Positions 8,013 to 30,711 of a DNA stretch of 64,000 nt are shown piece by piece (position 1 is the first letter of the stretch; every line of letters starts with the position of its first letter). Source of the DNA: a virus. The stretch covers positions 58,121 to 122,120 of IMG/VR virus record IMGVR_UViG_3300027770_003399; one strand, 5' to 3'. The translations under genes were made by a program, and so were the position numbers. The notes under the pieces were generated by a model. That model was not told where the DNA came from and did no database searches. It saw only the letters and a program-made list of their open reading frames with translations.

Positions 8013-9257
8013 ATGTATAATAGACGCAAATTTTTATTGACCAGTGGTGCTGCTGGTTTGAGTATAGTCTCTAATAATATATCTTTTGGTGTTGATACTA
8101 CCAATGCTCCAGATATTACTCCTAATGAAAATAGTGTTCTATATATCTTTTTAAGTGGTGGGCCAACACAGATTGAAACATTTAACCCTATTCCAGAATC
8201 TACAGCAGAACGAAAATCTATTATTGGTCATTTAAATACAAATGTTGCAGGAATACGGATTGGTGGATTATGGACTGAACTAGCACAAAAAGCTAATAAG
8301 TTTTCTATTGTCAATAGTTTCAGTCATGGAGATGCTAACCATGAAAGCGCAACTCATTGGATGATGACAGGAGAAAGAACAGTTCCTAACTCACCTCCAA
8401 AGTGGCCCAGTTATGGCAGTGTTATTGGGGGCCAATATGGAACCAATACTGCTGATGGGTTGCCCACATATATTAAGCTCAACGATATTCAATATGATGG
8501 GGCAGCATGGATGGGTAATAAGTATATGGGATATACTGCTGCTGGAGAAGGTATTAAGGATTTAATCTTAAAGGAAAAACAAAAGTTTGAAAAAAAATTA
8601 GATATTCTAAAGATGATAGAGAGCGGTTCAAGAATTAGCCCAGATAATAAAGTATCACAGAATTGGATGGAACTTAGGGATCAGGCTGTTGGTGCATTAA
8701 TGGGTAAGGCTAGTGAAGCCTTTTTAATAGAAAAAGATGCTGAGTTTGAAGATTATAAAAAAGACCAGTTGGGCAAAGACTTTTTAACAGCAATAAGATT
8801 AGTAGAACGAGGAGTTAAGTTTGTTACTCTGAATTATGGTGGGTGGGATATGCACGACAATATAGCAGAAGGAATGAAAGGTAGAGTTCCCCCACTAGAT
8901 CATTATATTTCAAAGTATTTAACCTCTATGGAAAAGAGACAAATGAATACTAAAAATATGTTGGTTATGAGTGGGGACTTTGGAAGAACTCCAAAGATTA
9001 ATAAAGGCGGTGGACGAGATCACTGGCCTAGTTTAATCCCCCTGTTTATTGCTTGTGATGGATATAATATGGGCAGAACTATTGGAACATCAGATGCTAA
9101 TGCTGAAAGAGCCGATCAGAATCCTTTTGAACCAGAAGATTTGAAGTGGACAATGTTTGATCATCTGGGAATAAATAAGACTGCTGATTGGTACAGTATT
9201 GAGAATAGACCTCACTCTTTTGTTAAGACAGAAGCTAAGAATATACTAAAGGTGTAA
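8013..9257 (+). CDS. DUF1501 family protein with RR leader
   Basis: 414 residues. It begins MYNRRKFLLTSGAAGLS, a twin-arginine-type export leader. It then shows the family blocks LSGGPTQIETFNP, VNSFSHGDANHE, YGGWDMHDN and GDFGRTPKINKGGGRDHW. Export to the cell envelope is expected if the host has TAT. The 86-base upstream gap holds a weak TATAGTGTATG element and an AGGAA site. The function of DUF1501 is unknown; many planctomycete members are paired with other secreted proteins. Here it is followed by a PspC-domain membrane protein three bases after the stop. Confidence 0.9.
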   Translation: MYNRRKFLLTSGAAGLSIVSNNISFGVDTTNAPDITPNENSVLYIFLSGGPTQIETFNPIPESTAERKSIIGHLNTNVAGIRIGGLWTELAQKANKFSIVNSFSHGDANHESATHWMMTGERTVPNSPPKWPSYGSVIGGQYGTNTADGLPTYIKLNDIQYDGAAWMGNKYMGYTAAGEGIKDLILKEKQKFEKKLDILKMIESGSRISPDNKVSQNWMELRDQAVGALMGKASEAFLIEKDAEFEDYKKDQLGKDFLTAIRLVERGVKFVTLNYGGWDMHDNIAEGMKGRVPPLDHYISKYLTSMEKRQMNTKNMLVMSGDFGRTPKINKGGGRDHWPSLIPLFIACDGYNMGRTIGTSDANAERADQNPFEPEDLKWTMFDHLGINKTADWYSIENRPHSFVKTEAKNILKV

Positions 9258-18000: not shown

Positions 18001-18231
18001 ATGAAAACATATTTTATAGTATTAACTGACAATTACCACAGATTTGATACTTATGAACAAACTCGTATTTTTTGTTCACAGAGTGTAGACAAAGGAGTAT
18101 TTCCAAAACATATAAAAGAGTATTATTCACAATCCCACAATCTAATTACTGAATATATGGTTCAATCAGATGTTAGATTAATAGTGACTAAATATCACGA
18201 AGGAGTCAGCGATGAAGTCAGAATGGTATAA
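18001..18231 (+). CDS. small hypothetical protein, 76 residues
   Basis: Begins MKTYFIVLTDNYHRFDTYEQ. The ATG at 18001 lies seven bases after the preceding stop; no good ribosome binding site is seen. The C-terminal codons overlap the start of the next gene by 20 bases. The 17863 in-frame ATG would overlap the previous gene heavily and is not preferred. Confidence 0.55.
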   Translation: MKTYFIVLTDNYHRFDTYEQTRIFCSQSVDKGVFPKHIKEYYSQSHNLITEYMVQSDVRLIVTKYHEGVSDEVRMV

Positions 18232-18652
18232 AATTAATGATCTGAAAACCTTCATAAAGCATACTAGGTTCATGGTCTTTGAAACATTTGGAGACGGTAA
18301 TAACAGAGCGAATGATGATTTTACTGAATTAATGTCAAACCAAAAACTCAAAGATAAAAAAGAAATGGAAAGGCTCCTTCCTGCTAAAGAGACAATTCAA
18401 ATAATCACGGCTGGAATAAAAAAACGATTATCAAAAGATGGAGAGGTAGAATTTACAGTAACGAATAAGGCATTTAAGAAAATGTTGGAAGAGCTAAATG
18501 CTAGAATGGTTAGTAACATACTTGCGAAATTATCATCAGAAGGACTAATAGAAACTGCTTTTGATAGTGAAAAAAATGATTTTGTATTTTGGGTAAGTGA
18601 AAAAGGAAATAGTCATGTTGAAGAAGAAAGTCCAGAGCCAGAAACCGATTGA
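18212..18652 (+). CDS. hypothetical protein, possible winged helix
   Basis: 146 residues after a GGAG site. The segment FTVTNKAFKKMLEELNARMV followed by ILAKLSSEGLIETAFDSEKNDFVFWVSEKG (core: LAKLSSEGLIE then a beta hairpin) has the layout of a winged-helix DNA-binding domain. The C-terminus is acidic. It overlaps both neighbours, so it belongs to the operon that ends with RuvB. Confidence 0.55.
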   Translation: MKSEWYKINDLKTFIKHTRFMVFETFGDGNNRANDDFTELMSNQKLKDKKEMERLLPAKETIQIITAGIKKRLSKDGEVEFTVTNKAFKKMLEELNARMVSNILAKLSSEGLIETAFDSEKNDFVFWVSEKGNSHVEEESPEPETD

Positions 18653-19151
18653 GCATGATATTCATTTAAAATATAAGTGTCCAACCTGCGATCAACATCA
18701 TTGGTTAGCTTTTAGAGAAGCTAAAACAAAAAATTTCAAGGTTGTTTGTGATTGCAATACTGTTTTTAAAGTCAAAAGAATCTCTGCTTTTAAAATTAAG
18801 TATCAGCTAGAAAACAAATCTTTTGAAATAGAAAAGACCAAGAACGAGATCGCTCCTCCAATAGTAGCTGCCACAGTAGTAGCTCCAATAGTAGTTGCCC
18901 CGGTAGTAGCTCCAATAGTAGTTCCTCCAGTAGTAGCTCCAATAGTAGTTCCTACAATAGTAGCTCCTCCAGTAGTAGCCCCACCCCAGATTCCATTAGA
19001 GTTATTGAATAAAGCATGTAAACTTTTTATAACTTATGGATTTACACAGAAAGAATCGATATTGCTGTTAAAGTCTAGTTATGAGAAAAATCCAGTAGAT
19101 GACTATTCTAGTTTAATAAAAAACACCTTGGAACTAATTAAGAGAAAATAA
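18615..19151 (+). CDS. zinc-ribbon / RuvA domain III-like fusion
   Basis: 178 residues in three parts. Residues 22-47 carry C22, C25, C45 and C47, a zinc-ribbon-like set (CPTC ... CDC). Residues ~78-124 are a Pro/Val/Ala linker made of repeated APIVV/APPVV units. Residues ~126-178 (LNKACKLFITYGFTQKES then SSLIKNTLELIKRK) resemble RuvA domain III, the mobile domain that binds RuvB. RuvB is the very next gene, two bases away. Domain-level similarity is by eye. The ATG at 18615 is chosen because AAGGA lies upstream. It could recruit RuvB to DNA without the RuvA tetramer core. Confidence 0.6.
   Translation: MLKKKVQSQKPIEHDIHLKYKCPTCDQHHWLAFREAKTKNFKVVCDCNTVFKVKRISAFKIKYQLENKSFEIEKTKNEIAPPIVAATVVAPIVVAPVVAPIVVPPVVAPIVVPTIVAPPVVAPPQIPLELLNKACKLFITYGFTQKESILLLKSSYEKNPVDDYSSLIKNTLELIKRK
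18858..18985 (+). repeat. in-frame Pro/Val linker repeats
   Basis: Short DNA units built from GTAGTAGCTCCAATA-like words repeat in frame about eight times and encode the APIVV linker. Copy number is likely to vary by slippage or recombination. Confidence 0.75.
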
Positions 19152-19153
19152 AG

Positions 19154-20047
19154 ATGACATTCAGACCAACTAAATTTGAGGATATTGTAGGACAATCAGA
19201 TGTTATTAATCGTCTAAAAATCAGCACTCATGGTTTTAAAAGTGGGGAGTCATCATCCATGCCTCATCTTTTAATAGACGGCCCACCGGGGTTAGGAAAG
19301 ACCACCCTAGCCTGTGCAATAGCTAATGAGTTAGGAGTTCCTATTCTTGTTGCCAATGGAGCAAATCTAAGAAGTATTAAAAATATAATTCCTTATCTAT
19401 TGGGAATATCTTCTAAAACAGTTTTATTTATAGATGAAATTCATAGACTAACAAAAATAGTCGAAGAGTTTCTGTATCCTGTTATGGAAGATTTTATTGT
19501 TAATATTAGTACCGATGGAAATTTAGAGAAGATCGATATTCCACAATTTACTCTTATAGGAGCAACAACTAGTGGGGGAAGTTTAAGTCAACCTTTTTAT
19601 GATAGATTTCAAATGAAAGAGCATCTTTCTTTTTATACCCCAGATGAGCTAGCTAAACTAGCAGGATCGAATAGTCAGAGGCTTGGTATGGCCCTTGACG
19701 ATGAAGAACTATTGGAAATAGCAAAAAGGAGCAAGGGAACCCCTAGAATTCTTAACGCTAGATTACAGTGGTACAAAAGTTGCGTCTCTTATCACAAAGA
19801 TAAAAAAATGACGGTTGACGAAATATTTGATAGCCAAGGAATTGACAGTATGGGATTAGATATTTATGATAGAATGTATATAGGCATATTAAAAAAACAC
19901 AGGGGAACTCATCTTGGACTAAAAAGTATCTCAACATTAACAGGAATTGCTGTTGAGACAATAGAAAATAGTATCGAGCCATATTTAGTAAGGTCTGGTT
20001 TTGTACTGAGAACACAAAAGGGTAGAACTTGCGGTAACATAGATTAG
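19154..20047 (+). CDS. ruvB: RuvB-like Holliday junction ATPase
   Basis: 297 residues, slightly shorter than bacterial RuvB (~335). It starts FRPTKFEDIVGQ, as RuvB does after its N-terminal extension. Walker A GPPGLGKTT is at 43-51, Walker B LFIDEIHR at 92-99, and sensor 1 GATT follows. The C-terminal winged-helix has LDIYDRMYIGIL, SIEPYLVRSGFVLRTQKGR (core: IEPYLVRSGF). RuvB drives branch migration with RuvA. No canonical RuvA is in the window, and the gene before encodes a RuvA domain III-like tail. A general clamp-loader-like role is the alternative, but the C-terminal domain favours RuvB. Confidence 0.88.
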   Translation: MTFRPTKFEDIVGQSDVINRLKISTHGFKSGESSSMPHLLIDGPPGLGKTTLACAIANELGVPILVANGANLRSIKNIIPYLLGISSKTVLFIDEIHRLTKIVEEFLYPVMEDFIVNISTDGNLEKIDIPQFTLIGATTSGGSLSQPFYDRFQMKEHLSFYTPDELAKLAGSNSQRLGMALDDEELLEIAKRSKGTPRILNARLQWYKSCVSYHKDKKMTVDEIFDSQGIDSMGLDIYDRMYIGILKKHRGTHLGLKSISTLTGIAVETIENSIEPYLVRSGFVLRTQKGRTCGNID

Positions 20048-22005: not shown

Positions 22006-23343
22006 ATGTTTTCTATTTTTGGGGAACAATATGGCATCTGTAATAAGCTAGGTAGAAGAGATTTTCTATCAATAGGTGGATTATCTTTTGGTCTGGGTGG
22101 ATTATCTTTGCCACAAATATTAAAAGCTCAAGAGTCTTCTGGTAAAAAACACAAATCTTTAATCAATATATTTTTAGCTGGTGGGCCACCTCATCAAGAC
22201 TTATGGGATTTAAAGCCAGATGCTCCGTCTGAAATTAGGGGAGAATTTGATCCCATCAAAACTAATGTTGGTGGAATTGAAATTTGTGAAGTTTTTCCAC
22301 AGTTAGCTCAACGAATGGACAAGTGTGCTATCATACGATCTATCATTGGTTGTCATGGAGATCATGCTGCTTTTCAATGTATGTCTGGTTGGACTCCTGA
22401 TAATCTAAAAAGTATTGGAGGAAGACCCTCTATCGGAGCAACAGTCTCACGAATCCAAGGGTCTGTTGATCCATCTGTTCCAGCATATGTTGGTTTAGCA
22501 GATAAGACCGATCACATGCCTTGGTCTGATGCTGGAGGAGCGGGGTTTTTAGGAACATCTCACGGGGCATTTAAACCAGATGGGCCAGGATTACAGAATA
22601 TGATATTAAAAGATTTAACTTTGGATAGAATACGAAATAGAAAAGACTTGTTAGCTAGTATAGACAATTTAAAAAGGGCGATGGATTCTAATGGGTCTAT
22701 GAAAGGGATGGATTCATTTAGTCAAAAGGCTTTTGATGTTTTATCTGGTAGTAAATTATTAACAGCATTAGATTTGTCAAAAGAAGACCCTAATGTATTG
22801 TCTGCTTATGGAGATGGAAAACCTTATAATTATCAATATGATGGAGCGCCCACTTGTAATGACCATCTTTTAATGGCTAGAAGATTAATTGAAGCAGGAG
22901 TGCGGGTGGTGAGTCTTAGCTATGGTCGATGGGATAGTCATGGTAGTAATTTTGATTTGGTCAGAGATCATGGGTCAAAATTAGACCAATCTCTTAGTGC
23001 TTTAATAGATGATCTTAGTACCAGAGGAATGTTAGATGATGTAACTATTATAGTTTGGGGAGAATTTGGTAGAACGCCAAAAATAAACAAAGATGCTGGA
23101 CGAGATCATTGGCCTCAAGTAAACTCAGCATTATTGGTTGGAGGAGGAATGAAAACGGGACAGGTTATCGGTTCCACCAATAGACTAGGGGAATATGCTG
23201 TTGATAGACCAGTTCATGTTCAAGAAATATTTGCAACCCTCTATCATAATCTTGGCATAGACACATCACAACAAACAATAGTAGATACAACTGGAAGACC
23301 CCAATATCTTGTTGAGCACCCTTATCTTAAAGAATTAGTCTAA
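22006..23343 (+). CDS. DUF1501 family protein with TAT-like leader
   Basis: 445 residues, the most complete of the three paralogues. Its N-terminus has GRRDFLSIGGLSFGLGGLSL, a twin-arginine leader of the type seen in planctomycete DUF1501 proteins. Family blocks: LAGGPPHQDLWDLKP, CAIIRSI, SYGRWDSHGS and GEFGRTPKINKDAGRDHW. An AGGAG site precedes the ATG. Its stop overlaps the ATG of a membrane-anchored vWA protein, so the two are co-translated and probably act together in the envelope. Confidence 0.92.
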   Translation: MFSIFGEQYGICNKLGRRDFLSIGGLSFGLGGLSLPQILKAQESSGKKHKSLINIFLAGGPPHQDLWDLKPDAPSEIRGEFDPIKTNVGGIEICEVFPQLAQRMDKCAIIRSIIGCHGDHAAFQCMSGWTPDNLKSIGGRPSIGATVSRIQGSVDPSVPAYVGLADKTDHMPWSDAGGAGFLGTSHGAFKPDGPGLQNMILKDLTLDRIRNRKDLLASIDNLKRAMDSNGSMKGMDSFSQKAFDVLSGSKLLTALDLSKEDPNVLSAYGDGKPYNYQYDGAPTCNDHLLMARRLIEAGVRVVSLSYGRWDSHGSNFDLVRDHGSKLDQSLSALIDDLSTRGMLDDVTIIVWGEFGRTPKINKDAGRDHWPQVNSALLVGGGMKTGQVIGSTNRLGEYAVDRPVHVQEIFATLYHNLGIDTSQQTIVDTTGRPQYLVEHPYLKELV

Positions 23344-29709: not shown

Positions 29710-30711
29710 ATGGCAAAGGGGTTAGATGTTGGAACGTCATATATTGTTTTATCTAATGAGATTAATAATACTATAGAATATAAAGATTTTAGAGATGCCT
29801 TTTATATTATCAGGCCATCAACTCCTGTTGCGACTAAAATGATAGAGAAGGGGTTGGCCGGTAAGATTTTCGTCAAAGATATAGATGGGTCATTTATAAT
29901 ACTGGGTAATGATGCTATAGAAAAAGCCATAGAAAGAAATGATAGTGCTAAAAGACCCATGTATAAGGGAGTAGTCTCTGCAAAAGAGAAAGATGCTAGA
30001 AAAATATTATCATTTATTTTAAAAGAGGTTGTAGGAAAAGCAGATGAGCCTAATGAAAAATTAGTGTTCTGTATACCTGCTCAACCGATAGATCAACAAG
30101 ACGATGATTTTGATGTTGGCTATCATGAAGATGTTATTAAATCTGTATTAGCAGAATGTGGATATGCTGCTAGAAGTATCAATGAAGCTGAAGCTCTATG
30201 TTATTCAGAATTAGAGAATGATGATTATACGGGTCTTAGCTTGTCTTGGGGTGCTGGCATGGTAAATATATGCATAATGCTTAATGGAGAGCCAACTGTG
30301 ATGTTCTCTACTACAAAAAGTGGAGATTGGATAGATAGAATGAGTGCTATCGCAACAGGGGAGCCTGATAGTGTTGTGCAAGCAGAAAAGGAGCACGGAA
30401 GTTTTATTATTGGACAAGACAACCCAAACCAAGTACTAGCTGCTGTTTCAGCATATTACGAAAGACTAATAGACTATACCACTAAACAACTAACAGCATC
30501 CTTATTACATCATAAGTCTTTGCCGAAGTTCAAAAATCCACTACCTATTGTTGTAGCAGGAGGAACATCTCAAGCAGCAGGGTTTATAGAAGAATTTGAG
30601 AAAAAATTAAAAGAAAATAATTTCCCTCTGGTAATACAACAGGTCAGACACGCAAAAGATCCTCTTCATGCTGTTTCTAGGGGGTGCTTAATAGCATCTA
30701 AAGTTTTATGA
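29710..30711 (+). CDS. actin/Hsp70-superfamily ATPase (ParM/MreB-like)
   Basis: 333 residues. GLDVGTSYIVL at the start is the phosphate-1 loop, LSLSWGAGMVNICIM about 175 residues later the phosphate-2 loop, and PIVVAGGTSQAAGF the adenosine motif. The spacing fits the actin/Hsp70/ParM fold without an Hsp70 substrate domain. Phage actin-like proteins segregate DNA or organise the infected cell. The stop overlaps the subtilase start by four bases (ATGA). Confidence 0.75.
   Translation: MAKGLDVGTSYIVLSNEINNTIEYKDFRDAFYIIRPSTPVATKMIEKGLAGKIFVKDIDGSFIILGNDAIEKAIERNDSAKRPMYKGVVSAKEKDARKILSFILKEVVGKADEPNEKLVFCIPAQPIDQQDDDFDVGYHEDVIKSVLAECGYAARSINEAEALCYSELENDDYTGLSLSWGAGMVNICIMLNGEPTVMFSTTKSGDWIDRMSAIATGEPDSVVQAEKEHGSFIIGQDNPNQVLAAVSAYYERLIDYTTKQLTASLLHHKSLPKFKNPLPIVVAGGTSQAAGFIEEFEKKLKENNFPLVIQQVRHAKDPLHAVSRGCLIASKVL

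What the first reader, a model, noticed from the sequence alone, without database searches (positions are those of the whole stretch)
18615..20047. RuvB paired with a zinc-ribbon/RuvA-domain-III-like fusion instead of RuvA
RuvB is rare in phages and needs RuvA to load on junctions. Here the gene two bases upstream encodes a zinc ribbon, a Pro/Val linker and a tail resembling RuvA domain III, the RuvB-binding part. This would be a minimal recruiter of a branch-migration motor to a different DNA structure.
Basis: partly seen in the sequence, partly recalled or inferred. Interest (0 to 1): 0.8.

Follow-up and report, generated by a model that had tools for sequence, protein, structure and literature searches.

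The report
Phage RuvB with non-RuvA docking adaptor
A family of large environmental phages carries its own RuvB DNA-pumping motor, usually next to a small protein that joins a zinc-binding head to the RuvB-docking tail of RuvA, which suggests that the tail has been borrowed to aim the motor at something other than the Holliday junctions RuvA recognises.

Summary
ORF 19154-20047 is an intact RuvB. Two bases upstream, ORF 18615-19151 encodes a four-cysteine zinc ribbon, a linker and a C-terminal three-helix tail.

The tail is a RuvA domain III. A profile of 40 relatives ranks RuvA domain III first among 177,635 PDB sequences (E=0.0011). Profile-profile comparison scores 44.2, against at most 14.2 in 200 shuffles. 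The AlphaFold model's best 16 Foldseek hits are all RuvA (about 1.5 Å over 49 residues). E. coli RuvA L167 and L170, needed to activate RuvB, fall on nearly invariant Leu and Tyr.

The pair is a conserved cassette in IMG/VR phages. The adaptor precedes RuvB in 76 of 92 loci; searched from the adaptor side, RuvB follows in 78 of 79, the exception being a contig that ends there. The dependence is one-way: RuvB persists in 16 loci without the adaptor. No RuvA N-domain or RuvC was found in the large relatives.

Docking on RuvB is inferred: the structure predictor closed before I could test it. What the ribbon binds is unknown. The Pro/Val linker is a local 27-bp minisatellite, not a family trait. 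I rate this a new variant of a known kind.

The parts
18615..19151 (+). Adaptor gene: zinc ribbon + linker + RuvA-domain-III-type tail (178 aa; alternative GTG start 18597)
   Evidence: homologues in the same place in 76 of 92 RuvB loci
18663..18803 (+). Zinc ribbon, residues 17-63; C22, C25, C45, C47 and W30 invariant in 41 relatives
18804..18992 (+). Flexible linker, residues 64-126; contains a 27-bp minisatellite at 18856-18967 giving the Pro/Val repeat
18993..19148 (+). RuvA domain III-type tail, residues 127-178
   Evidence: PDB profile search E=0.0011 to 1ixs_A; Foldseek top 16 all RuvA; VIA Z up to 8.1 over 127-178; hhalign prob 96.5
19154..20047 (+). RuvB-family AAA+ motor (297 aa)
19499..19540 (+). 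RuvB presensor-1 beta-hairpin (E. coli L135-L152), the site that binds RuvA domain III in known RuvAB; tip 4 residues shorter
   Evidence: site defined in PMC9477746 and PMC2628435
20009..20026 (+). RTQKGR, equivalent of the DNA-contacting R314/R317/R319 hairpin of P. aeruginosa RuvB
   Evidence: PMC10071043
18212..18652 (+). Conserved gene before the adaptor, weakly winged-helix-like; present at every RuvB locus (92/92), including those without the adaptor

Best explanation
The two genes encode a phage RuvB motor and a small adaptor that replaces RuvA. The adaptor's tail is a RuvA domain III. As in RuvAB, it would dock on the presensor-1 beta-hairpin and helix alpha3 of RuvB, tether the hexamer and stimulate its ATPase cycle. 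RuvA's Holliday-junction-binding domains I and II are missing; in their place a basic zinc ribbon on a flexible linker anchors the motor to another target, most likely a recombination or replication DNA intermediate or a protein bound there. RuvB then pumps duplex DNA. Shown here: RuvB identity and intact catalytic motifs, domain III homology of the tail, four-cysteine ribbon, conserved linkage, no RuvA N-domain detected. Inferred: docking, activation, zinc binding, ribbon target and branch-migration output.
For: Tail is RuvA domain III by sequence: RuvA top of PDB, Pfam RuvA_C hit by 8/40 tails, NCBIfam ruvA by 15/41, hhalign 44.2 against a shuffle maximum of 14.2. By fold. E. coli RuvA L167A and L170A abolish RuvB activity without loss of junction binding (PMC2628435); those positions are Leu in 37/41 and Tyr in 39/41 tails, and G171 is 41/41. 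RuvB keeps the hairpin hydrophobics (L135, I137, I150, L152), Walker A and B, sensor 2 and the DNA-contacting arginines. Adaptor loci have RuvB next door in 78 of 79, so the adaptor depends on RuvB. No RuvA_N in 13 records.
Against: Docking was not computed. The hairpin is as well conserved in RuvB of adaptor-less phages as in the others (interface 0.82 against 0.84), so its conservation does not prove that it binds this tail. The adaptor is missing at scattered places on the RuvB tree (at least 8 changes), so the motor can work without it. Nothing shows what the ribbon binds. The records are not known to be complete.
Confidence: 0.66

Rival explanations
1. The ribbon binds a phage protein (polymerase, SSB, recombinase or RNA polymerase) rather than DNA, so the adaptor docks RuvB on the replisome or another machine.
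For: Zinc ribbons are common protein-binding modules (general knowledge); the phages carry their own Pol III alpha and RecA-like protein. Compatible with everything shown about the tail.
Against: The N-arm and ribbon are basic in most members (median net charges +3 and +4), which fits nucleic acid at least as well. No partner identified.
Confidence: 0.3
2. The tail is an ordinary UBA-like three-helix bundle that resembles RuvA domain III by convergence and does not bind RuvB.
For: UBA/CUE domains share the fold and appear in the structural list at Z 5.8 and below; a single tail scores weakly by sequence.
Against: RuvA outranks UBA in independent tests; profile-profile score far above shuffles; the tail sits beside RuvB in 78 of 79 loci.
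Confidence: 0.1
3. The phage RuvB acts as the phage's clamp loader or another replication loader, with the adaptor as its small subunit.
For: It is the only match to the phage clamp-loader family in each of 15 records.
Against: Match to RuvB is far stronger (5.8e-43 for RuvB_N alone against 1.1e-21) and includes the RuvB C-terminal winged helix and its DNA-contacting arginines. No gp45-type clamp above cut-off. The phages use a C-family polymerase, which could use the host clamp loader.
Confidence: 0.08
4. The adaptor's tail captures or poisons the host's RuvB rather than serving the phage RuvB.
For: RuvA and RuvB from different species can work together (PMC9477746).
Against: The gene is always next to a phage RuvB, 2 bases away in the window, which points to that RuvB as partner.
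Confidence: 0.06

Closest known systems
Bacterial RuvAB branch-migration complex
   Same: RuvB motor with N, lid and winged-helix C domains; partner gene directly upstream ends in a domain III on a flexible linker; RuvB hairpin that binds domain III is present.
   Different: Partner lacks RuvA domain I and the junction-binding domain II; it carries a zinc ribbon instead. RuvB lacks the N-terminal ~20 residues and has a shorter hairpin tip. No RuvC found; an endonuclease VII-family nuclease is present in most large relatives.
RuvA (domain III only, PF07499)
   Same: Fold, sequence profile and the RuvB-activating hydrophobic positions.
   Different: Only this domain is shared; it is not a RuvA.
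Phage clamp loaders (gp44-type, phrog_168)
   Same: AAA+ core; phage setting beside rIIA and rIIB.
   Different: RuvB-specific hairpin and C-terminal winged helix; far better match to RuvB.
Jumbo-phage RuvC systems (PMC7824862)
   Same: Large phages with their own junction-processing enzymes.
   Different: [quoted passage not shown] here RuvB is present and RuvC was not found.

Membership tests
RuvB | RuvB_N, AAA lid and RuvB_C domains in order | tested here: met
RuvB | Walker A, Walker B, arginine finger, sensor 2 | tested here: met
   (65/65, 65/65 and 64/65 for Walker A, Walker B and sensor 2); DRF of the arginine finger invariant
RuvB | Presensor-1 beta-hairpin with hydrophobic positions | tested here: met
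   tip 4 residues shorter
RuvB | Hexameric duplex-DNA translocase, branch migration | not testable with these tools
   needs biochemistry
RuvA | Domain III (RuvB-binding) at the C terminus | tested here: met
RuvA | Domain I (RuvA_N, OB fold) | tested here: not met
   no RuvA_N in the adaptor or in 13 phage records
RuvA | Domain II, helix-hairpin-helix junction binding | tested here: not met
   adaptor model holds only ribbon, linker and tail; no HhH hit
RuvA | Tetramer on Holliday junction | not testable with these tools
   needs biochemistry
Zinc ribbon | Two pairs of cysteines on beta knuckles | tested here: met
   four cysteines in 41/41 members; confident beta-rich model; zinc itself not tested
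Phage clamp loader | Best match to clamp-loader family, collar domain in place of winged helix | tested here: not met
   RuvB_C winged helix present, RuvB match stronger

The most novel reading that the evidence does not exclude
RuvA domain III is a transplantable coupling that phages use to aim a RuvB motor at targets other than RuvA-bound Holliday junctions. The repeated loss of the ribbon adaptor would mean the anchor is exchangeable, with other phage proteins (for example the neighbouring winged-helix-like gene) or host RuvA taking its place.
Probability: 0.35. Interest if true: 0.86.

Novelty: new variant of a known kind. Interest (0 to 1): 0.72.

Why it matters
RuvB is studied only as RuvA's partner on Holliday junctions. 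A natural RuvB whose partner keeps the docking domain but has a different head would show which parts of RuvA are needed to run the motor and which only choose the DNA. It would give a minimal system for testing that split, would add a branch-migration motor to phage recombination, and would correct the published view that phage junction enzymes come without a RuvB.

Tried and rejected
Single-sequence searches with the window adaptor in Pfam, PHROGs and PDB gave nothing; relatives were needed. tblastn of the adaptor against GenBank phages gave nothing. Full-length RuvB hits among GenBank phage records looked like phage RuvB, but those opened were bacterial: ruvA lies next to ruvB in 12 of 13 stretches read, and the 13th is a prophage edge. 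Mixed alignment A3 misplaced the adaptor rows and was discarded. Alignment-wide scans with A2 failed for lack of conserved stretches. Literature searches for phage RuvB with branch migration, rIIA/rIIB, jumbo or huge phages, or RuvA-like plus zinc ribbon found no report of this pair; that library lacks most subscription journals. Promoter-like sites near the pair are no more than chance.

Full report
Observation. RuvB (19154-20047) matches RuvB_N, the AAA lid and RuvB_C and PDB RuvB at 1e-59. The upstream ORF (18615-19151) stops two bases before it. Alone, that protein has no significant database match.

Relatives. A scan of IMG/VR with the window RuvB found 389 related stretches; the best 80 loci lie on contigs up to 238 kb. 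A second scan started from the adaptor. Of 92 loci with RuvB, 76 have the adaptor immediately upstream and 16 do not (L001 and L081 are the same place). In the reverse test, 79 loci found through the adaptor itself have RuvB directly downstream in 78; the last contig ends within 400 bases. So the adaptor is found only with RuvB, while RuvB is sometimes found without the adaptor. On a RuvB tree the adaptor's absence needs at least 8 changes, 4 of them forced by well-supported branches, which reads as repeated loss. Large adaptor-less records (200 and 230 kb) contain neither adaptor nor tail anywhere.

The tail is RuvA domain III. A profile of 40 tails searched against all PDB sequences puts T. 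thermophilus RuvA domain III first, the one solved in complex with RuvB (1ixs_A, E=0.0011), then other RuvA chains. Pfam RuvA_C is hit by 8 of 40 tails and NCBIfam ruvA by 15 of 41 full proteins, in each case more members than any other family. Profile-profile alignment with 15 RuvA domain IIIs gives probability 96.5 and score 44.2; 200 column-shuffled controls reach at most 14.2 and the reversed profile 9.9. The AlphaFold model has a confident ribbon, an unstructured linker and a confident three-helix tail. Foldseek's first 16 PDB hits are all RuvA (E 0.4-1.2, probability up to 0.99, 1.5 Å over 49 residues), and VIA-align gives RuvA Z up to 8.1 over residues 127-178, with UBA/CUE domains at 5.8 or below. 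Those Z values alone would be modest for a small helical domain; the agreement of the sequence and structure tests carries the conclusion. E. coli RuvA L167 and L170, whose mutation abolishes RuvB activity but not junction binding (PMC2628435), align with a nearly invariant Leu (37/41) and Tyr (39/41) next to an invariant Gly.

The RuvB side. Walker A, Walker B, sensor 2 and the C-terminal arginines that touch DNA are conserved in all or nearly all of 65 phage RuvBs. The presensor-1 hairpin that receives RuvA domain III in solved complexes (PMC9477746) keeps its hydrophobic positions and is four residues shorter at the tip. It is equally conserved in adaptor-less phages, so this is permissive evidence, not proof of docking.

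What the adaptor lacks and adds. There is no RuvA_N domain in it or in 13 phage records, and its model contains no helix-hairpin-helix region. It adds a basic four-cysteine ribbon (41/41; median net charge +4). The linker is the least conserved part (12% identity, 10-62 aa); in the window it is a 27-bp minisatellite.

Genome setting. The window lies in a 122,120-base phage record that is probably incomplete: the RecA-like, endonuclease VII and Pol III alpha genes of its larger relatives were not found in it. In relatives the order rIIA, rIIB, one or two small genes, a weakly winged-helix-like gene (92/92), adaptor, RuvB recurs. The larger records carry a RecA-like protein (12/13), an endonuclease VII-family nuclease (11/13) and Pol III alpha (12/13), but no RuvC, Pol A or Pol B. 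RuvB is their only clamp-loader-like match.

Known work. [quoted passage not shown] PHROGs has no RuvB family that matches. The full-length RuvB hits I opened in GenBank phage records lie in host chromosome context. I found no description of this pair.

Mechanism. The best reading is a RuvB motor with a substitute for RuvA: tail on the hairpin, ribbon on the target. Homology of the tail is well supported; docking is likely by homology; the target is open.

Noticed in passing
window 1-1123 (gene starts at G000:C1:57903), 8013-9257, 22006-23343: Three DUF1501 proteins, at least two with a Tat-like N terminus, in one phage record (Pfam E 1.9e-98, 1.2e-62, 9.2e-89). From general knowledge this family is typical of Planctomycetes-type bacteria, so they may point to the host; three copies in a phage are unusual.
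   Followed up: partly
window 29710-30711 and relatives (cluster 7, 67 loci): Actin-like protein matching Pfam Volactin at 1.4e-62; conserved 1-2 kb downstream of RuvB in many relatives.
   Followed up: no
window 18212-18652 (cluster 0, 92/92 loci): Gene always just upstream of the RuvB/adaptor unit, weakly winged-helix-like; it stays when the adaptor is lost, so it may be the more essential RuvB partner.
   Followed up: partly
12 large relatives (G001-G004, G013-G020): Phages with rIIA/rIIB but a bacterial C-family Pol III alpha and no Pol A or Pol B match.
   Followed up: partly
window 18856-18967: 27-bp minisatellite (4.1 copies, 90% matches) encoding the Pro/Val linker; linker length may vary between close strains.
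   Followed up: no
GenBank 'phages' records, e.g. MT836546, OR844993, CAKLQF020000007: Records labelled phage that carry a chromosomal ruvA-ruvB pair, i.e. likely host contamination.
   Followed up: partly
L143 (RFVO01000059.1, Chitinophagia MAG): The only adaptor+RuvB pair found in bacterial genome contigs, on an 11.4-kb contig; probably a phage contig binned with the MAG.
   Followed up: no
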